Origin: Erythrobacter sp. NAP1
Lineage (GTDB): Bacteria; Pseudomonadota; Alphaproteobacteria; Sphingomonadales; Sphingomonadaceae
Assembly (NCBI RefSeq): GCF_000152865.1
Contig: NZ_CH672390.1
Span: 1,178,001 to 1,242,000, forward strand
Direction of reading: 5' to 3'
Length of the DNA stretch: 64,000 bases
The position numbers were made by a program, and so were the translations under genes. The notes beneath the pieces are model-generated. The model ran no database searches. It saw only the letters and a list, made by a program, of their open reading frames with translations, and had not been told where the DNA came from. Shown here one piece after another: positions 36,967 through 45,013 of this stretch (position 1 is its first letter; each line of letters begins with the position of its first letter).

Positions 36967-38253
36967 TTGGCAGACAAGCAGGCGAAACTCGAACTAGGCG
37001 GGCAAACTTACGAGTTTCCCGTGCTCGAAGGCAGCACCGGCCCTGATGTGGTCGATATTCGGAAGCTGTATGGTTCAACCGGCGCCTTCACCTTTGACCC
37101 CGGCTACAAGTCGACTGCAAGCTGCGAAAGCGCGCTGACATATATCGACGGCCAGGAAGGTGTCCTTCTTCACCGCGGCTATCCGATCGGCCAGCTGGCC
37201 GAGCATTCGAGTTTCATGGAAACCGCGTATCTGCTTCTTAATGGCGAACTGCCGAGCCAGCAGGAGTACGAGGACTTCAATTACACGATCACGCGGCACA
37301 CCATGCTGCACGATCAGTTGAACACGTTCTATCAGGGCTTCCGCCGTGACGCGCACCCGATGGCAATCATGTGCGGCGTTGTTGGTGCTCTGTCGGCCTT
37401 CTATCACGACAGCACCGATATCTCGGACCCCGAGCACCGCAAGATCAGTTCGCACCGATTGATTGCGAAGATGCCAACCATCGCAGCGATGGCTTACAAA
37501 TACTCGGTCGGTCAGCCATTCATGCAGCCCAAGAACGACCTGAGCTACACGGGCAACTTTCTGCGCATGACCTTCGGCGTTCCGGCTGAAGAATACGAAG
37601 TCATTCCGGCGGTAGAAAAGGCGATGGACCGGATCTTCATCCTCCACGCCGACCACGAACAGAACGCATCGACCTCGACCGTTCGCCTCGCCGGCTCGTC
37701 GGGCGCAAACCCGTTTGCCTGTATCGCAGCTGGCATTGCCTGCCTCTGGGGCCCGGCTCACGGCGGCGCAAACGAAGCGGCTCTCAACATGCTGCGCGAG
37801 ATTGGCACGCCTGACCGCATCCCGCACTACATCGAGCGCGCCAAGGACAAGAACGACCCGTTCCGTCTGATGGGCTTTGGCCACCGCGTCTACAAGAACT
37901 ACGACCCGCGTGCGACGGTCATGCAGTCGACGGTGCGCGAGGTGTTCGAGGCGCTCAACGTCAAGGATCCGGTGTTCGAAACCGCGCTCCAGCTCGAAGA
38001 GATCGCTCTCAACGATCCGTATTTCAAAGAAAAGAAGCTGTTCCCGAACGTAGATTTCTACTCAGGCATTATCCTGTCGGCGATCGGCTTCCCGACCACG
38101 ATGTTCACCGCTCTGTTTGCCCTTGCCCGCACGGTGGGCTGGGTCGCGCAGTGGAACGAGATGATCTCCGACCCAGCACAGGTCATCGGACGTCCTCGCC
38201 AGCTTTACACCGGTCCAGTTGAGCGCGACTACGTGCCGCTGAGCGAACGCTAA
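36967..38253 (+). CDS. gltA: Citrate synthase (type II)
   Basis: 428 residues from TTG 36967, with GGAG 7 bases ahead. Motifs: the acidic start with [15 protein letters not shown], catalytic-His blocks [10 protein letters not shown] and [11 protein letters not shown], and the late FYSGI block with Asp. It condenses oxaloacetate and acetyl-CoA at the entry to the TCA cycle. The length and N-terminal domain fit the hexameric, NADH-sensitive type. A strong terminator follows 29 bases after the stop. Confidence 0.97.
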
Positions 38254-38316: not shown

Positions 38317-39738
38317 CTAGGACTTCGAGGTATCGGCTGCGGCGAGCGTAAGCTTGAACTGCGCCCCAGCGCTTACTTCGTCCTGGCTCGGTTGAACGAC
38401 TTCGAGATCGCCTCCCATTGCCAGTGCCAGCTTGCGCGAGATGTAGAGGCCGAGACCCGAGCCTGTGTCATTTCCGCCATCACTGTCCCGGCCAAGACGC
38501 TCGAACTTGTCGAAGATCTTCTCGGCCTGCTCGGCATCCACGCCAGGCCCTTCATCGCGCACACTTGCGCTGACCAATCCCTCACCCGCTTTCTGAGCCG
38601 TCACGGTCACGGTGCTACCCTCGGGCGAATAGGCAATCGCGTTACCGATCAGGTTGATTAAGATCTGGAGGACGCGGCGAAATTCGCCCATCGCAATCAC
38701 AGGCTCATCACCGCATTCGATCGCGAAATCGATCTTGCGATCACGGGCTCTGACCCCAAGTATTCCCGTCGCGCGCCTTGCGACGTCAGCGAGATCAACC
38801 CGCTCGCTTGCGGTAGAGAAGCCCGGAGCCTCGACCACTTCAAGGTCAGCAAGGTCATCGAGCATGCCCGACAAGTGCTGACCGGCAGCTGCGATATTGC
38901 CGGCATACTCGCTGTATTCGTCGCGCAAGGGCCCGGCGAGCCGTGTGCGGATGGTTTCGGCATTGGCGATGATGCGCGCGATCGGTTGGCGCAGAACCGG
39001 GGTGAGCGCGCTGCCGATTATGCGGGAATGCGCGCCCTCGATCTCTGCTGGCTCAGTCCCTGCGCCATCAACACCCAGCGGTTCATTCGCGAGCAAGAGC
39101 AGCTCGAAACCGCGCGGCGCCGCTCTATTCGGACCCAAGGGTATTAGCCTCACACGCCAATTGCGAGACGAACCGGGTATGCTGGCGCTCGCGCCGTCTA
39201 GTAGGCGCCAATGAAGGGGCTGCTGGTGCGAGATCCCTTGCAACTCGACATGATCGGACCACGCGCTGCCCGGATTTGCCTCGACAGCATCTTTGAAGCT
39301 GGTCGCATCACCAGCGCAGTCGGTGACGATTTGGACCTGTTGGCGAGCATCCAGACGGGCGCGGACCTCCGCCGTTGCGCGGTCGACTTCATCGATCCTC
39401 TGCGCATCGTCATGTGAGCTGGTTTCGCTCTGAACGGCCCGGTGCCAGTTCTCGACGATCACCTCGCATCCGCCGAGCTCATCATCGTCAATTGGCTGAA
39501 TTCGAGCAAATCCGCTGACGATCTCTTCGCCATCAAATGCACTGAATTCCTTCGCGATGCGAAGGCCCATGCCCCGTGAGCGGCGCACGAGCGCCAACAG
39601 CTCAGGAATGGCGAGCGTTCCAGGTAGAGTGCCACCGCATGCCTCGTGCAGTTCTGCCAAAGGCTCATCGGCAGTCAGCAACCGGTCCTGAGCATCGGTC
39701 AAACCGCGGGCGGCCGTGATGGATTGTTGCCGGTTCAC
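38317..39738 (-). CDS. Histidine kinase-like protein lacking the phospho-acceptor His
   Basis: 473 residues from GTG 39738, overlapping the preceding stop by GTGA. Residues 1-230 resemble no named domain clearly (a PAS-like segment is possible at about 155-225). Helices at 235-305 form a HisKA-like dimerisation domain, but where kinases read SHELRTPL this reads TPVLRQPI: the His is Pro247 and the next Glu is Val248. The ATPase domain is intact, with N box NLIGNAIAYS (Asn366), G1 DEGPG (395-399), F box IFDKFERLG and G2 GSGLGL (427-432). No membrane helix. It can probably bind ATP but not autophosphorylate. It is the last gene of a minus-strand row with 39735-40673. Confidence 0.85.
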   Translation of the reverse strand: MNRQQSITAARGLTDAQDRLLTADEPLAELHEACGGTLPGTLAIPELLALVRRSRGMGLRIAKEFSAFDGEEIVSGFARIQPIDDDELGGCEVIVENWHRAVQSETSSHDDAQRIDEVDRATAEVRARLDARQQVQIVTDCAGDATSFKDAVEANPGSAWSDHVELQGISHQQPLHWRLLDGASASIPGSSRNWRVRLIPLGPNRAAPRGFELLLLANEPLGVDGAGTEPAEIEGAHSRIIGSALTPVLRQPIARIIANAETIRTRLAGPLRDEYSEYAGNIAAAGQHLSGMLDDLADLEVVEAPGFSTASERVDLADVARRATGILGVRARDRKIDFAIECGDEPVIAMGEFRRVLQILINLIGNAIAYSPEGSTVTVTAQKAGEGLVSASVRDEGPGVDAEQAEKIFDKFERLGRDSDGGNDTGSGLGLYISRKLALAMGGDLEVVQPSQDEVSAGAQFKLTLAAADTSKS

Positions 39739-40673
39739 GCGAGCCCTCCGCGAGATGCCTTGAGCAACTCCTTGGCGACCTCAGGCGGCATTGACGCAAT
39801 TCCGTCGGGCGGCGACTGGCTCTGGTCGAGCAGGCCGAACTGCGTTTCGATCTCTTCTGCATCGAGTCCGGCGGCCCGGAGGCTGATGGTCAACCGCGCC
39901 GATTGGCGATCATGGCAGGCACAAATCGCATGGTCACGGCTTTGCATGGTAAGCGCCGCTAGCGAGCTTGCGAACAGAGCAAGCCCGGCGTGTTCAAGGT
40001 TCAGCCCCGCAATCGCCCCTCCACGCATGTTCGATGTCACCCGTGCCAGCAGGCCAAGCCGCGTTGCCGCCTCGTCATAGTTCGCCTTTAGCTGCCCCAT
40101 TGCTCGATCAAGCTGTGCAGGTTCGCAATCCTGCGCGGCATTGCAAAAGCGCTCGATCACAGCCGCGAACAACTCCGAGGGAAGCTCTCCGAGCGGCAAT
40201 TCCATGCGTCTTTGACACAGGTTGAAGCGCGATTGAGCCGCCATCGCACTCATCGCGAGTTCGGCAGTATCGGGATGATTGGACGCAATCAGCTCCTGCA
40301 TCAGCGGGCTGAGGACAGGATCAATCCCAAATTGGGTTTCTAGCCGGTCCGCCAAGTGCCCCTCCATCGCGAGCGCATAGAGGTGGTCAATTAGGGCGCT
40401 ATCATTCGAAAGTTCATCGACAATGCGGTCGATTTCCTCATCGCTCGCCGCGCTGGATGTGACAGCTTCAAGCAACTGCCGCGCGATATCGCTTAGCATG
40501 CCGCGCAACCTCGCGACTGCCGCGTCGCTGACAAGAGAGCCGCCACCTGTGTCGAGCATGTGCGAAATGACCGGCGCAACCGAACGCAGCGCGCGATCTT
40601 CACGCTCCAGCTCATCCTTCAGGATAGCTTCCACAAAGGTGGTTTCAGTCCGGTCCATTCCCATTTCGCCCAT
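39735..40673 (-). CDS. Conserved helical protein of unknown function
   Basis: 312 residues from ATG 40673 (MGEMGMDRTE), with GGGG seven bases ahead; starts at 40685 and 40658 are also possible. Almost entirely alpha-helical by composition (Ala, Leu, Glu rich) and without membrane segments. A conserved-looking stretch lies in the middle around AQSRFNLCQRRMELPLGELP. I do not recognise a family; a match to DUF2336 was considered and not supported. It is translationally coupled to the kinase-like gene (GTGA overlap), and a CtrA-like box lies 26 bases upstream. A partner or regulator of the kinase-like protein is an inference. Confidence 0.75.
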   Translation of the reverse strand: MGEMGMDRTETTFVEAILKDELEREDRALRSVAPVISHMLDTGGGSLVSDAAVARLRGMLSDIARQLLEAVTSSAASDEEIDRIVDELSNDSALIDHLYALAMEGHLADRLETQFGIDPVLSPLMQELIASNHPDTAELAMSAMAAQSRFNLCQRRMELPLGELPSELFAAVIERFCNAAQDCEPAQLDRAMGQLKANYDEAATRLGLLARVTSNMRGGAIAGLNLEHAGLALFASSLAALTMQSRDHAICACHDRQSARLTISLRAAGLDAEEIETQFGLLDQSQSPPDGIASMPPEVAKELLKASRGGLA

Positions 40674-40698
40674 CCGGCACCCCATACAGCGCCTATGG

Positions 40699-40713
40699 TT
40701 AAGGCGGGGTTAG
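40699..40713 (-). promoter_or_regulatory. CtrA-like box upstream of the helical protein gene
   Basis: TTAA-GGCGGGG-TTAG on the plus strand; on the minus strand it reads CTAA-N7-TTAACCAT, 7 of 8 defined bases of TTAA-N7-TTAA and including the extended TTAACCAT half. It lies in the 41-base gap just before the gene at 39735-40673, in promoter position. Confidence 0.5.
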
Positions 40714-40714
40714 C

Positions 40715-41938
40715 TCAATATGCTCGCTCACGCAGCATCAATTGCACTGCGGCCGCGAGTGCAAAGAGAGCAAGCGCTTCCGGCAACAGTCCAAAACCCG
40801 CAGCGCCTGCGAAGATAGCCATATGCAATGCGCGGTCCCTCCAGATGGCTGTAACGAGCGGAGGTCTATTAGGCGTATGACCTTCCCCGGCTATCTGCGA
40901 CAAAACCATTGCAAGAATAGCCAATGATATCAGCGGCAAAGAGATCGAAGTTGAGGCTATCGTCAAGGCAAGGGCAGCAACGCATAGCAGGTCCGTGACA
41001 ATCGATAGCCCACGTTCAAGCCGCGCACTCGCCCCGCGCGACCAAAGCGCAGAGCGCATGCGTGCCCAAGAACCGCTCAGTTGACCAACAAAGGCACCAA
41101 TTGCGGCAACACCCAAGCCCCACGGCCCCAGACCAAGTCCCGCAAGCAGCGCGCCAATACCAAGCATCGCGATGGCGCCGACCGCGCTCATCTCTGCGCC
41201 TTTTTCAAGCCAGCGCGGTGCTGTTTCGCGAACAATCGCATCAGCGACGGCTTGGAATGGTGCGCTTGCTGGTGCCGCTGGCGCACTTGAGGTGATCAAC
41301 GCACGCTCACGCTCTTCCAGAGCTGCCTGCGACGTCGCCAGCAGCCAGCGATCTTCCTCTAGACTGTCTGAGGACACAGCAAGGCACTCCGTCCTTGCTT
41401 GCAGTGCAAGCCGCAGCAGGAGAGAGGTCGCATTGCCGTCTTGTGGAAGATCGGCAAGCTCCTGGACCTTGCCGGCCCGCATGATCGCAAGACCAGCCCA
41501 GTGCCGATCCCGGTCGATCCTTTCAAAATCCTCCGGAAAAGCTTCGGCCAGTTCGTGGCCTGAGGCGATGGTCCAGATCCCCTTTTTCAGCTGGGCTTGA
41601 TCGCTCATCAAGCCAAGAACAGCCCCGCGGTCCGGCACAAGCCCGTCGGCAATCAGCACCAGATCGTCATCAGCCCGCATGATGCCGGTCAGCTGGATGT
41701 TTCCGCGCACCACATGAAACTCATGGCCATCGCTCTCGACCCATTTTTGCTGGGCCAGCACCTCTTCGGAAGGGCTTTCGCACATACATACGACACGTTC
41801 ACAACCGAGCGCTTGAGCAAGCTCGATTTGCCACGCCAGGACGCTGCGCCCACCAAGCGTCAGCTCAGCCAGCAGATTGCCAGAAGAGGTGCGTTTGATC
41901 GCGGCGACAAGAGCGGTGCGCAATGTGGGACTTTCCAA
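40715..41938 (-). CDS. Nucleotidyltransferase-like / CDP-alcohol phosphatidyltransferase-like membrane protein, apparently degenerate
   Basis: 407 residues from a TTG at 41938 (start uncertain, no clear RBS). Residues 1-200 resemble a sugar-nucleotide/IspD-like transferase (TALVAAIKR..GGRSVLAWQIELAQALG), but the GxGxR nucleotide loop and the following Lys are missing. Residues 250-402 hold six hydrophobic helices. Between helices 2 and 3 the CDP-alcohol phosphatidyltransferase signature DG-x2-AR-x8-G-x3-D-x3-D is kept in exact spacing, but reads SG (288-289), AR (292-293), G302, Arg306 and Gly310, so the visible signature Asp are lost. The layout resembles archaeal inositol-phosphate cytidylyltransferase/DIPP synthase fusions. 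Probably a pseudoenzyme in the inner membrane. Confidence 0.75.
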   Translation of the reverse strand: MESPTLRTALVAAIKRTSSGNLLAELTLGGRSVLAWQIELAQALGCERVVCMCESPSEEVLAQQKWVESDGHEFHVVRGNIQLTGIMRADDDLVLIADGLVPDRGAVLGLMSDQAQLKKGIWTIASGHELAEAFPEDFERIDRDRHWAGLAIMRAGKVQELADLPQDGNATSLLLRLALQARTECLAVSSDSLEEDRWLLATSQAALEERERALITSSAPAAPASAPFQAVADAIVRETAPRWLEKGAEMSAVGAIAMLGIGALLAGLGLGPWGLGVAAIGAFVGQLSGSWARMRSALWSRGASARLERGLSIVTDLLCVAALALTIASTSISLPLISLAILAMVLSQIAGEGHTPNRPPLVTAIWRDRALHMAIFAGAAGFGLLPEALALFALAAAVQLMLRERAY

Positions 41939-42045
41939 TTGAGAATGTCCGCGAAGCTAGGCGTAGCAAACGCCGCTCATCAACCGGCGAGCGCAGGCAA
42001 ACCCCATCATTTTGCGGTGAGTGGCAGTGAAAACCGCCCGCGTCG

Positions 42046-42363
42046 TTACTGGAAGCCCACGCCCCGGCCATCGAAGCGGTCGAGAACCGTCTCGATCTGG
42101 CGAATGGCCGCAGGCTCTCCGGGCGCAGACGACAGTGCGTTTTCAGCAGCGAGCAGCAGCTCCTCGGCATGAAAACTGGCAGCGAGGCCCTTCAATCGCA
42201 TTGCTGCGACATTCCAGTTGCCATCACAGCGCGAGCGTTTGAGCAGGTCGAGCTGCTTGGTGGCGCTTTCCACAAATGCCGAGCGCAATTCGCCGAGCAG
42301 TGCCGGATCGTCTCCGGCAGCTGCCGCTAATGTCGCGTCGAGGGCTCCGCTTTCATAGGCCAT
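42046..42363 (-). CDS. Hpt-like protein without the phospho-acceptor His
   Basis: 105 residues, a four-helix Hpt pattern: GDDPALLGELRSAFVES, then AAMRLKGLAASF, then LLLAAENAL. In Hpt domains the central motif is AHxLKGxxxxxG; here the His is replaced by Met55 (AMRLKG), so phosphotransfer by this residue is impossible. His65 is ten residues later and not in the acceptor position. The gene lies upstream of the degenerate nucleotidyltransferase-like gene on the same strand and diverges from the coiled-coil protein gene. It could act as a docking protein for response regulators or the kinase-like ATPase. Confidence 0.75.
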   Translation of the reverse strand: MAYESGALDATLAAAAGDDPALLGELRSAFVESATKQLDLLKRSRCDGNWNVAAMRLKGLAASFHAEELLLAAENALSSAPGEPAAIRQIETVLDRFDGRGVGFQ

Positions 42364-42388
42364 GACTGAGATGGATAAGCACTTGGAG

Positions 42389-42403
42389 TTAATGCGGGGT
42401 TTA
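42389..42403 (+). promoter_or_regulatory. CtrA-like box between the Hpt-like and coiled-coil genes
   Basis: TTAA-TGCGGGG-TTTA, 7 of 8 defined bases of TTAA-N7-TTAA. It lies in an AT-richer stretch between the Hpt-like start (42363) and the preferred coiled-coil start (42434), and could serve both divergent genes. Confidence 0.45.
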
Positions 42404-42433
42404 TCCCAGCCTAAGCTGTGGTATCTTCACGGA

Positions 42434-45013
42434 ATGTCAGGCGGACACCATATCCGGGCCGTGGGCCCCAACGCCGCGCAAGATGCGCAATCCGAAACCG
42501 AATCGGGCGCAGCTGCGCCTGACGAGATCGCTGCCAGCGATGGCGAGCTCGATCTTTCGGATTACACTGAGGAGTACGCCGACGAGGCTGCCTTTGAGGA
42601 CGATGCTTACGTAACCGCGTCGCGTTTCGGTTGGGTCGCCCCTGCCCTCGCCTTCAGTGTCGTTGCGGTATGGACCGGTCTCTACGTTTGGGCGATGCAG
42701 GATCAGCTGCTGAACGCTGCGAGCGCACAGCCGGCGCAATGGACACGCTGGATCATCGACTGGTCGGTTCCGGTTCTTCTTGTTTGCGTCGTCTGGTTAT
42801 TGACCATGCGGCACTCGCGTGCCGAAGCGAAGCGCTTTGCCGAAACCGCGGCGCTTCTTTCGCAGGAAAGCCGCGAGCTTGAAGATCGACTGACCGTCGT
42901 GAATAGGGAACTCAGCCTTGCTCGCGAGTTTCTTGGGGCACAGTCGCGCGAGCTTGAATCGCTTGGCCGTATCGCGAGCGAGAAGCTCTCGACCCACGCC
43001 GCCGAACTCCAGTCCCTCATCAAGACGAACGGCGCTCAAGTCGATGCGATCGGTAGCGCCAGCGAAACCGCGCTTGGCAATATGAACCGCCTTCGTGACG
43101 ATCTGCCAGTGGTCGCCAACTCTGCGCGCGATGTGTCGAACCAGGTTGGCGCGGCCGGGCGCACGGCTCAGGAACAGTTGGACAAGCTTGTCACAGGGTT
43201 TGAACGCCTCAACCAGTTTGGCAAGGCCAGCGAAAATCAGGTGACCGCGCTGGATAACCGTGTTGGTGAGATACTCAGCAGCTTCGGGGCACAGATTGCC
43301 GCGGTGGAAGAAACGGTCGGAAAACGCCTCGAAGCGGTGAAGACCATGGCCGCAGACTATCGGACCGAAGTTCAAGCCGCCGAAGAGCAAGCCATCGCTG
43401 CCATTGGTAAGCGGATCACCACCCTGGAAAGCGAAACGGAAGCGGTTTCGATCAAGCTTCGCGATGCTGAAACGGGGGCGCTGAACCAGTTGCTCGCCTC
43501 GAAGAAACGCTTTGAGGAAGAAGTCGGTAAGACAGTGGAGTCGCTCGATCGACTGGATGCCCATGCTCTTGCTGCATCACAGAAACGGATTCACGAGCTC
43601 AATCAGGAAGCCATCCGCTTCGATGAACGCCTCGGCATTCGTGACCGCAAGTTCCTTGAGGAAATGACCCGCCGCCAAGAGGAGTTTGAAACCCGTGAAG
43701 CGCAGGCCAGCGAAGTTCTGGCGCAGCGCCTGGCCGATCTCGACGATGCTCTTGCGGAACGCCGCGTTGCACAGACGCAGGAAACCGAGAAGCTCGTTGC
43801 CCATTCGGCCGCCATTGGCGAGCAGCTTGAGAAACTCTCTACCCTCATCGGATCGATCGACCAGCAAGGCGAGACAACACGAACGAACCTCACCGCAGGG
43901 CTCAGCGATCTCGACAAACAGCTGACCGACAAGCGCGCTGCGCTCAGTGAAACAGAGGCGCAGCTTGCTGAATTGACGGAATCAGGCATCAGGCTGCTCG
44001 AGATCATTCAATCTGGTGCCAAGCATAGCCGCGAAGAATTGCCTGAAGCGATAGAAACGGCGCTCGGATCGCTGGGGTCGGTCGAGGAACGAGCGGACAA
44101 GCTTTCCAGCATCATGTTCAGCACTCGCGAGAACGCCGAAGGCTTGGCCGAATACCTGATCACCACGCAAGGGAAGATCAGCGATACGGAAAGCCAGGTT
44201 GCAGACCTTCAAGCCAAGCTCACCGAACAATCCGAAGAAGCGCTTTCGCGTCTGCAGGGCCTTCGTGGCGGTTTCACGCGCCTGAGCCTTGAAAGCAGCG
44301 AGTTCGCCGAAGGGACGCAGGATACGCTTCGGCTCGCGCTCAACACGCTTGAGAGCGCTACGAAGTCCGCATTCGCTGCGCTCGAGGACGGGGCACGCGA
44401 GAAGGTCGGGACGCTGGCGCAGACTATCTCGAAAGAGGCAGCTCAGGAGATCGAGCGCGCTCTTCGCAATGACACCGCAGAAACCGTCGGGAAGCTTGAA
44501 CAGGCGGCAAGCCATGCCGCTGGCGTAGGCCGTGAAGCCACCGCACAATTGCGCGATCAACTCGCCAAGGTGAACGAGTTGACCGTCAACCTGGAGCAGC
44601 GCGTCTCGCGGGCGCGCGAATTGGCCGAAGAGCAAGTCGGGAACGACTTCGCACGGCGCATGGCTCTGATTACGGACAGTCTAAACTCGAATGCCATCGA
44701 TATCGCTTCGTCACTGTCGAGCGAAGTCACCGACACCCAGTGGGATGCATATCTCAAGGGTGACCGCGGTATCTTCACACGGCGAGCGGTTCGCCTTGTG
44801 AACAGCGGAGAGGCCAAGGAAATCGCTGAACTGTATCAGCGAGACGATGCGTTCAAGGCCAATGTCAGTCGTTACATCCACGATTTCGAAGCGATGTTGC
44901 GCTCGATGCTGTCCACACGCGATGGCAACGCACTGGGCGTCACGATCCTGGGGTCGGACATGGGCAAGCTCTATGTCGTGCTTGCTCAGGCAATCGAGCG
45001 CTTCCGCCAGTAG
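42434..45013 (+). CDS. Large membrane-anchored coiled-coil protein (TipN-like architecture)
   Basis: 859 residues from ATG 42434 (MSGGHHIRAVGPN). The frame opens at 42362, but that would overlap the start of the divergent Hpt gene and leave no promoter; 42392 is also possible. An acidic N-terminal region (about 15-60) is followed by two membrane helices (about 66-87 and 106-125). About 650 residues of heptad-rich, Glu/Ala/Leu/Gln-rich coiled coil follow, and a conserved-looking C-terminal domain of ~110 residues (TQWDAYLKGDRGIFTRR, RYIHDFEAMLRS). No ATPase motif is visible. The size and layout resemble Caulobacter TipN, a new-pole marker; this is architecture only, not demonstrated homology. 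Related sphingomonad proteins are often labelled ATPase without evidence. Confidence 0.8.
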   Translation: MSGGHHIRAVGPNAAQDAQSETESGAAAPDEIAASDGELDLSDYTEEYADEAAFEDDAYVTASRFGWVAPALAFSVVAVWTGLYVWAMQDQLLNAASAQPAQWTRWIIDWSVPVLLVCVVWLLTMRHSRAEAKRFAETAALLSQESRELEDRLTVVNRELSLAREFLGAQSRELESLGRIASEKLSTHAAELQSLIKTNGAQVDAIGSASETALGNMNRLRDDLPVVANSARDVSNQVGAAGRTAQEQLDKLVTGFERLNQFGKASENQVTALDNRVGEILSSFGAQIAAVEETVGKRLEAVKTMAADYRTEVQAAEEQAIAAIGKRITTLESETEAVSIKLRDAETGALNQLLASKKRFEEEVGKTVESLDRLDAHALAASQKRIHELNQEAIRFDERLGIRDRKFLEEMTRRQEEFETREAQASEVLAQRLADLDDALAERRVAQTQETEKLVAHSAAIGEQLEKLSTLIGSIDQQGETTRTNLTAGLSDLDKQLTDKRAALSETEAQLAELTESGIRLLEIIQSGAKHSREELPEAIETALGSLGSVEERADKLSSIMFSTRENAEGLAEYLITTQGKISDTESQVADLQAKLTEQSEEALSRLQGLRGGFTRLSLESSEFAEGTQDTLRLALNTLESATKSAFAALEDGAREKVGTLAQTISKEAAQEIERALRNDTAETVGKLEQAASHAAGVGREATAQLRDQLAKVNELTVNLEQRVSRARELAEEQVGNDFARRMALITDSLNSNAIDIASSLSSEVTDTQWDAYLKGDRGIFTRRAVRLVNSGEAKEIAELYQRDDAFKANVSRYIHDFEAMLRSMLSTRDGNALGVTILGSDMGKLYVVLAQAIERFRQ

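What the first reader, a model, noticed from the sequence alone, without database searches (positions are those of the whole stretch)
38317..45013. A five-gene locus of apparent pseudoenzymes beside a TipN-like coiled-coil protein
Seen in sequence: a kinase-like protein with Pro247 for His, an Hpt-like protein with Met55 for His, a CDP-alcohol phosphatidyltransferase-like protein whose signature spacing is intact but whose Asp are lost, a helical protein of unknown family, and a divergent two-helix membrane protein with ~650 residues of coiled coil. Three degenerate active sites in adjacent genes, two of them components of a phosphorelay, is hard to dismiss as decay because all frames are intact. 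Inference: a scaffold or switch acting by binding rather than catalysis, perhaps in polarity or cell-cycle control, in the manner of DivL (a known Tyr-containing pseudokinase). No function is shown.
Basis: partly seen in the sequence, partly recalled or inferred. Interest (0 to 1): 0.7.

Follow-up and report, generated by a model that had tools for sequence, protein, structure and literature searches.

The report
Dead phosphorelay on a polarity scaffold
Across most of the Sphingomonadaceae family, next to a long membrane-anchored scaffold-like protein, a histidine kinase and a phosphotransfer protein have each lost the histidine that carries phosphate while relatives in sister families keep it, so the set likely signals by binding instead of by passing phosphate.

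Summary
Five intact genes lie at 38317-45013: a His-less, ATP-site-intact histidine kinase (Pro247); a divergent DUF2336 protein; a degenerate nucleotidyltransferase/CDP-alcohol phosphotransferase fusion (best structural match IPCT-DIPPS); a His-less Hpt (Met55); and an 883-aa two-helix scaffold-like protein of a class-wide alphaproteobacterial family (TipN/GPR-like). All five occur together, in one orientation, in 38 of 61 family loci and 64 of 80 named loci. The kinase His-Glu pair is missing in 55 of 55 derived rows; the Hpt His in 41 of 42. Early-branching family members and sister families carry the canonical residues. So this was ancestrally a working module; one loss each of the kinase dyad and of the Hpt His (one apparent regain) fits the gene tree. 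One genome (G005) has a dead kinase and, on another contig, a His-bearing Hpt, suggesting the kinase went first. Where the kinase is absent, DUF2336 and Hpt nearly always are too. Conserved ATP-site residues and dN/dS of about 0.2-0.4 argue against decay. It is not DivL: the genome has a separate Tyr-type kinase. Binding-only, ATP-gated signalling on a polar scaffold is the best explanation; no localisation, binding or phenotype was shown.

The parts
38317..39738 (-). Pseudo-histidine kinase, 473 aa (GTG start), no membrane helix by hydropathy; N half resembles by eye the PAS region of its relatives (no Pfam match in the window copy), DHp without His, intact HATPase_c
38998..39000 (-). Codon 247 (Pro) in the slot of the phosphoacceptor His; next residue Val248 in the slot of the catalytic Glu
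39735..40685 (-). Divergent DUF2336-family helical protein, 316 aa
40715..41938 (-). Degenerate nucleotidyltransferase / CDP-alcohol phosphotransferase fusion, 407 aa, IPCT-DIPPS-like fold, hydrophobic C half
41060..41086 (-). Slot of DxxDGxxAR reads GQLSGSWAR: both Asp lost
42046..42363 (-). Pseudo-Hpt, 105 aa, helical-bundle Hpt-like fold
42199..42201 (-). Codon 55 (Met) in the slot of the Hpt phosphoacceptor His
42362..45013 (+). 883-aa membrane-anchored scaffold-like protein (TipN/GPR-like architecture), divergent from the Hpt gene
44615..45010 (+). Conserved C-terminal domain, matched in 104 of 289 genomes of the class; in the 20 frames fetched with longer flanks the match ends within 17 residues of the frame end
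   Evidence: ends compared from the coordinates

Best explanation
This is a former phosphorelay (histidine kinase plus Hpt) beside a TipN/GPR-like membrane scaffold whose kinase and Hpt have lost their phosphate-carrying histidines across the crown of Sphingomonadaceae, and it likely works now by binding partner proteins rather than by transferring phosphate. Shown: the residues are gone, the ATP site and the Arg in the response-regulator-docking position are kept, the genes are under purifying selection, and where the kinase is missing DUF2336 and Hpt are nearly always missing too. Inferred: the kinase, held at the membrane or pole by the scaffold, binds ATP and a response regulator (a DivK/CheY-like protein is the best guess) as a sensor or titrator in the manner of DivL; the pseudo-Hpt is a docking module; the degenerate IPCT-DIPPS-like protein is a structural membrane partner of the scaffold. 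The output would be on polarity or on the CckA-ChpT-CtrA relay; this last step is the least supported.
For: Kinase: phosphoacceptor column P35 A5 R5 Q3 T, E, N, G, V, D, H one each in 55 aligned family rows (the two His-bearing rows L113 and L114 set apart); neighbouring Glu 0 of 55, Thr 2 of 55, docking-position Arg 50 of 55; N366, D395, G397, G426, G428 and G430 55 of 55, N362 and G399 54 of 55. Hpt: W50 and R56 42 of 42, His column M12 L11 Q8 W7 G, A, E, H one each (L113 set apart). Named loci: kinase Pro in 69 of 70 found (1 unread), Hpt His in 0 of 75 found. Kinase outgroups: His in 10 of 10 sister-family kinases read and in 4 early-branching family genomes; the 57 derived rows form one clade, SH-aLRT 100. 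Hpt outgroups: His in 12 of 12 sister-family Hpts found (in 12 of 20 loci), divergent from the scaffold gene, and in 4 early-branching genomes; profile-profile probability 97.8, E 7e-13. Co-absence: of 15 loci without the kinase 15 lack DUF2336 and 14 lack the Hpt; 8 independent pairs, none opposed. dN/dS medians 0.22-0.37. Precedent for binding by a dead kinase: DivL (PMC4211667, passages). Sphingomonadales keep CckA-ChpT-CtrA but have degenerate or lost DivJ-PleC-DivK (PMC2877005, passages); a ChpT-family match is in this genome.
Against: No localisation, binding or phenotype data. The partner is unknown, and DivK itself is said to be degenerate or lost in this order. G024 has a His in the kinase slot (without the Glu) and G034 a His in the Hpt slot, so the strict letter needs 2 changes each, not 1. 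Kinase-Hpt co-absence alone is not significant (median p 0.06), 10 of 54 loci with the kinase show no Hpt, and P3 shows no co-absence with the kinase. 14 family genomes lack the kinase and show no Hpt at the locus and still keep the scaffold, so the module is dispensable over evolution. In early-branching genomes G005, G040 and G056 the kinase lies on another contig than the scaffold, so one compact five-gene locus is itself derived. The Hpt fold call by structure is within what helical bundles reach by chance. Hydropathy is weak evidence for topology.
Confidence: 0.5

Rival explanations
1. Relics: the genes are drifting remnants with no present function, kept by position between gltA and rnj.
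For: Active residues are lost in three of five proteins; the kinase branch is long (0.83) and 14 genomes have lost the kinase.
Against: All frames open in the window; dN/dS medians 0.22-0.37; six ATP-site residues 55 of 55; same order kept in 38 of 61 and 64 of 80 loci.
Confidence: 0.1
2. Neighbours without a joint task: gltA, the five genes and rnj stay together because this stretch is rarely rearranged.
For: gltA is in 50 of 61 and rnj in 48 of 61 of the family loci, 69 and 77 of 80 named loci; P3 and kinase come and go independently.
Against: Hpt stands beside the scaffold gene in 12 of 20 sister-family loci, and neither gltA nor rnj was found in any of those 20; kinase, DUF2336 and Hpt go missing together.
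Confidence: 0.2
3. A different catalysis: the kinase hydrolyses ATP or phosphorylates a non-His residue, and the Hpt is an acceptor at another site.
For: HATPase_c is intact; His288 in the second DHp helix is kept in 54 of 55.
Against: A His in that position is also seen in the canonical kinases of the sister families, so it is better read as structural; the Glu beside the acceptor is gone in 55 of 55.
Confidence: 0.15

Closest known systems
DivL (Caulobacter pseudokinase)
   Same: Histidine-kinase fold without the His; Arg in the docking position kept (placed by counting from the lost His); DivL 4q20 is among the sequence matches
   Different: Pro (or variable) instead of Tyr; no membrane helix found (that DivL has one is recalled); no Glu, seldom Thr; ATP site conserved whereas DivL binds an ATP analogue weakly (PMC4211667, passages); a separate Tyr-type kinase exists in this genome
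TipN (Caulobacter) / GPR (Agrobacterium) polar scaffolds
   Same: Length 882 aa for TipN and 883 aa here (PMC13170164, passage); two N-terminal helices as in GPR (PMC8262873, passages); Apolipoprotein-type Pfam hits in 11 of 34 members; GPR is reported similar to TipN (PMC8546619, passage)
   Different: No named TipN or GPR sequence was compared; polar location of the Sphingomonadaceae protein is unknown
Hpt proteins such as ShpA and HptB
   Different: Phosphoacceptor His absent
IPCT-DIPPS (Archaeoglobus, 4mnd)
   Same: First structural match over the whole protein (E 3e-9, TM 0.54); orthologues in G017, G030, G038, G003 and 5 of 8 sister-family relatives keep DxxDGxxAR
   Different: Motif incomplete in the other 67 of 71 family genomes, the window included; six rows keep the first Asp alone

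Membership tests
HisKA histidine kinase | Phosphoacceptor His in the H box | tested here: not met
   Pro247; 1 of 55 derived rows has a letter H there, without the Glu
HisKA histidine kinase | ATP-binding CA domain (N, G1, F, G2 boxes) | tested here: met
   HATPase_c 82.5 bits; six box residues 55 of 55, N362 and G399 54 of 55
DivL | Tyr in the place of the His | tested here: not met
   Pro; a Tyr-type kinase is found elsewhere in the genome, L341
DivL | Membrane helix at the N terminus (recalled) | tested here: not met
   none by hydropathy
PdhS/PleC/DivJ group | Groups with named members in a tree | tested here: inconclusive
   Nearest relatives have the DHp pattern that I recall for this group; no named PleC or DivJ was in the tree
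Hpt | Helical-bundle Hpt fold | tested here: met
Hpt | Phosphoacceptor His | tested here: not met
   Met55; His in 1 of 42 rows (G034), L113 set apart
CDP-alcohol phosphotransferase / IPCT-DIPPS | DxxDGxxAR...GxxxDxxxD signature | tested here: not met
   GQLSGSWAR; no Pfam match at E<=10
CDP-alcohol phosphotransferase / IPCT-DIPPS | Two-domain fold | tested here: met
   4mnd first of 514, E 3e-9, TM 0.54, rmsd 7.3
TipN/GPR scaffold | Two N-terminal membrane helices | tested here: met
   hydropathy only
TipN/GPR scaffold | Long coiled coil | tested here: inconclusive
   no coiled-coil program was run; SMC and Apolipoprotein profile hits are in line with it
TipN/GPR scaffold | Sequence homology to named TipN or GPR | not tested
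   No named TipN could be fetched; one search gave no names
TipN/GPR scaffold | Location at the new pole | not testable with these tools
   needs microscopy
DUF2336 | Match to PF10098 | tested here: inconclusive
   Window protein itself no match; 11 of 33 aligned members match at E<=1; G040 orthologue 218 bits

The most novel reading that the evidence does not exclude
A complete scaffold-tethered phosphorelay was converted, kinase first and Hpt second, into a catalytically dead signalling complex at the base of crown Sphingomonadaceae and has since been kept by selection as an ATP-gated binding switch for cell polarity: a pseudo-phosphorelay, with a pseudokinase and a pseudo-Hpt in one locus.
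Probability: 0.35. Interest if true: 0.78.

Novelty: new variant of a known kind. Interest (0 to 1): 0.62.

Why it matters
Pseudokinases such as DivL are known one at a time. Here a kinase and an Hpt at one locus, beside a polarity-type scaffold, lost their phosphate sites in an order that the tree suggests, and living intermediates exist: His-bearing kinase with His-bearing Hpt (G007, G040, G056), dead kinase with His-bearing Hpt (G005, on separate contigs), both dead (window). That makes the question of how a phosphate-passing system becomes a binding-only one directly testable, in an order where the usual DivJ-PleC-DivK control is reported as degenerate.

Tried and rejected
DivL orthology: rejected, a Tyr-type kinase (SYEFRTPL, 785 aa) is elsewhere in the genome; of 20 other HATPase loci read, 14 show a His, 1 the Tyr, 5 could not be read with the patterns used. 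Decay: rejected on dN/dS and conservation. The scan of genome contigs with the DUF2336 protein found nothing; the genome search found it in 33 of 79. NCBIfam holds no informative match for the scaffold-like protein. Naming TipN through G201's protein failed: 8 hits, no names. PDB sequence search with the Hpt alignment gave only chance matches, best E 0.12. Promoter scan found none (mean 1.6 in shuffles). Foldseek gave no Hpt match at E<=0.001 (best 0.42), so the Hpt call leans on VIA-align and on the profile match. A script meant to measure how far the conserved domain lies from the frame end picked wrong domains in coiled-coil stretches (first part) and was set aside; I compared coordinates instead. 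Paper searches: DUF2336 (0 papers), TipN with Sphingomonas (2, not opened), TipN with pseudokinase (2, titles unrelated), Sphingomonadaceae with cell polarity and CtrA (0), Sphingomonas with pseudokinase and histidine kinase (1, not opened), pseudo-Hpt terms (12 of 19 listed, none opened): no listing describes this locus; only open-access papers are searched. No paper was read whole; those cited were seen as passages. My notes said that six of eight sister P3 relatives keep the motif; the output shows 5 of 8. One search scored G024 and G034 as lacking the His; one search repeats the count with the strict letter.
Full report
What is there. Window 38317-45013 holds five intact genes: on the minus strand a 473-aa kinase-like protein, a 316-aa helical protein, a 407-aa membrane protein (P3) and a 105-aa Hpt-like protein; on the plus strand an 883-aa scaffold-like protein. 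The two divergent start codons overlap in CATG at 42361-42364, though a second ATG of the scaffold gene at 42371 is possible. Citrate synthase (gltA) and ribonuclease J (rnj), named from the sequence by recall, flank the set. The best 80 of 568 records found with the scaffold alignment are Erythrobacter, Porphyrobacter, Novosphingobium, Qipengyuania and similar, so the window is from an Erythrobacter-like member of Sphingomonadaceae (here meaning the tools' family f1).

Is it conserved? The scaffold is found in 78 of 79 family genomes, P3 in 59 of 79 with one sequence and in 20 of 20 family genomes with a profile. In 61 loci read in detail (60 plus the window): kinase 57, DUF2336 protein 50, P3 58, Hpt 43, scaffold 58; all five in 38, all 38 in the window's orientation. 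In 80 named loci all five are in 64; of the other 16, ten lack the kinase and sit on records of 4-12 kb, three lack only a P3 match and three only an Hpt match at the thresholds used.

The kinase. The phosphoacceptor column reads P35 A5 R5 Q3 and one each of T, E, N, G, V, D, H in 55 family rows (the two His-bearing rows L113 and L114 set apart). The one H (G024) has Ser where the catalytic Glu should be; the Glu is absent in 55 of 55, the Thr of the phosphatase motif in 53 of 55, while an Arg stands in 50 of 55 in the position of DivL R553, needed there for DivK binding (PMC4211667, passages; the position was placed by counting). Six ATP-site residues are kept in 55 of 55 and two more in 54. 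In named loci the slot is Pro in 69 of 70 kinases found and unread in one. The nearest relatives in sister families, 10 read out of the 60 sister-family genomes searched, all have SHELRTPLNAIIGFA in frames of 575-648 aa; PAS domains were shown by Pfam in the one scanned and in the G040 orthologue. Four early-branching family genomes (G007, G052, G040, G056) have the His-bearing form directly beside a DUF2336 gene; in G007 and G052 this pair lies within about 10 kb of the scaffold gene, in G040 and G056 on another contig. In the tree, built without the H-box columns, the 57 derived rows form one clade (SH-aLRT 100, branch 0.83); within it Pro is found in 35 of 36 rows of one subclade.

P3. The model (pLDDT 90.4) matches IPCT-DIPPS 4mnd first. 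The window has GQLSGSWAR where four early-branching orthologues beside the scaffold gene (G017, G030, G038, G003) have DGVDGKLAR; 4 of 71 family genomes and 5 of 8 sister relatives keep it. Three other family rows have a DGxxAR string outside the slot, and six keep the first Asp alone. The three intact forms scanned pass Pfam's cut-off for CDP-OH_P_transf (37-43 bits against 22).

The scaffold. Two hydrophobic stretches and a 130-residue conserved C-terminal domain. That domain is matched in 104 of 289 genomes across the class, on frames of 266 to 2752 aa; in the 20 frames fetched with longer flanks it ends within 17 residues of the frame end (coordinates), and 19 of these 20 have a hydrophobic N-terminal stretch, the other being cut by a contig end. 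Length and layout fit TipN (882 aa; PMC13170164, passage) and GPR (2115 aa, two N-terminal membrane helices; PMC8262873, passages), and GPR is reported similar to TipN (PMC8546619, passage). A named TipN was not compared.

Order of events. On the scaffold gene tree the loss of the kinase His-Glu dyad needs 1 change and of the Hpt His 1 change with G034 set aside; with the strict letter 2 each; P3 needs 3. G005 has a dead, very divergent kinase and, on another contig beside the scaffold gene, a His-bearing Hpt, which suggests that the kinase went first; its place has only moderate support (89) and its kinase branch is the longest of the tree.

Do they work together? Of 69 family rows, 15 lack the kinase at the locus; all 15 lack DUF2336 and 14 lack the Hpt, while P3 stays in 13 and the scaffold in all (the rows were chosen by it). 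On the tree, 8 independent pairs: DUF2336 goes the same way in 7.3 on average and never the other (median p 0.016), Hpt in 5.1 and never the other (median p 0.06); 10 of 54 rows with the kinase show no Hpt. In G075 the kinase lies about 47 kb away; in the other 14 the best whole-genome match is only at the level of unrelated kinases (E 1.5e-25 or weaker). Hpt absence was judged at the locus only. Kinase, DUF2336 and, less surely, Hpt thus behave as one module added to a core of scaffold and P3.

Mechanism. Shown: no phosphate site in kinase or Hpt of the window, no phosphatase motif, ATP site and docking-position Arg kept, purifying selection (dN/dS medians kinase 0.26, DUF2336 0.32, P3 0.37, Hpt 0.23, scaffold 0.31, Nei-Gojobori on stop-to-stop frames of the named loci, so rough). 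Inferred: a binding-only switch on a membrane or polar scaffold, DivL-like in manner. The relay CckA-ChpT-CtrA is reported for this order (PMC2877005, passages) and a ChpT-family match is in this genome; CckA, CtrA and DivK were not searched.

Limits.

Noticed in passing
window 36967-38253: Citrate synthase (gltA) lies convergent to the pseudokinase gene; a gltA match is in the same stretch in 50 of 61 family loci and 69 of 80 named loci. In Caulobacter a citrate synthase (CitA) was found as a cell-cycle regulator in a tipN cpdR mutant screen (PMC7083601, passages); a link is only suggestive.
   Followed up: partly
L266 8598-9720, L267 9010-10150, L269 6261-7329, L270 9844-10906; also L255, L261: In other sister-family loci the scaffold gene stands beside a CheY-like receiver protein (by eye) and an Hpt-like protein with IAHDM[RK]GQGGTFGY or similar; the one scanned (L266) scores 22.7 bits for Hpt against a cut-off of 24.6. 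Phosphorelay parts beside this scaffold may be a wider theme.
   Followed up: partly
L231, L232, L247, L250: Elsewhere in the class the scaffold gene is near what look like Mla-type lipid transporter genes (ABC protein, MlaD-like, lipoprotein); read by eye only.
   Followed up: no
L341 126-2480: A 785-aa frame of the window's own genome with SYEFRTPL, a Tyr-type DivL-like kinase, distinct from the window's pseudokinase.
   Followed up: partly
L115 (G024) and L107 (G034): Two crown genomes carry a His in the lost slot: G024 in the kinase (no Glu beside it) and G034 in the Hpt (AHRLQG). Regain or retention is open.
   Followed up: partly
window 42361-42364: The start codons of the divergent Hpt and scaffold genes overlap within CATG, so promoters would lie inside the coding sequences unless the scaffold starts later, for example at 42371.
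   Followed up: no
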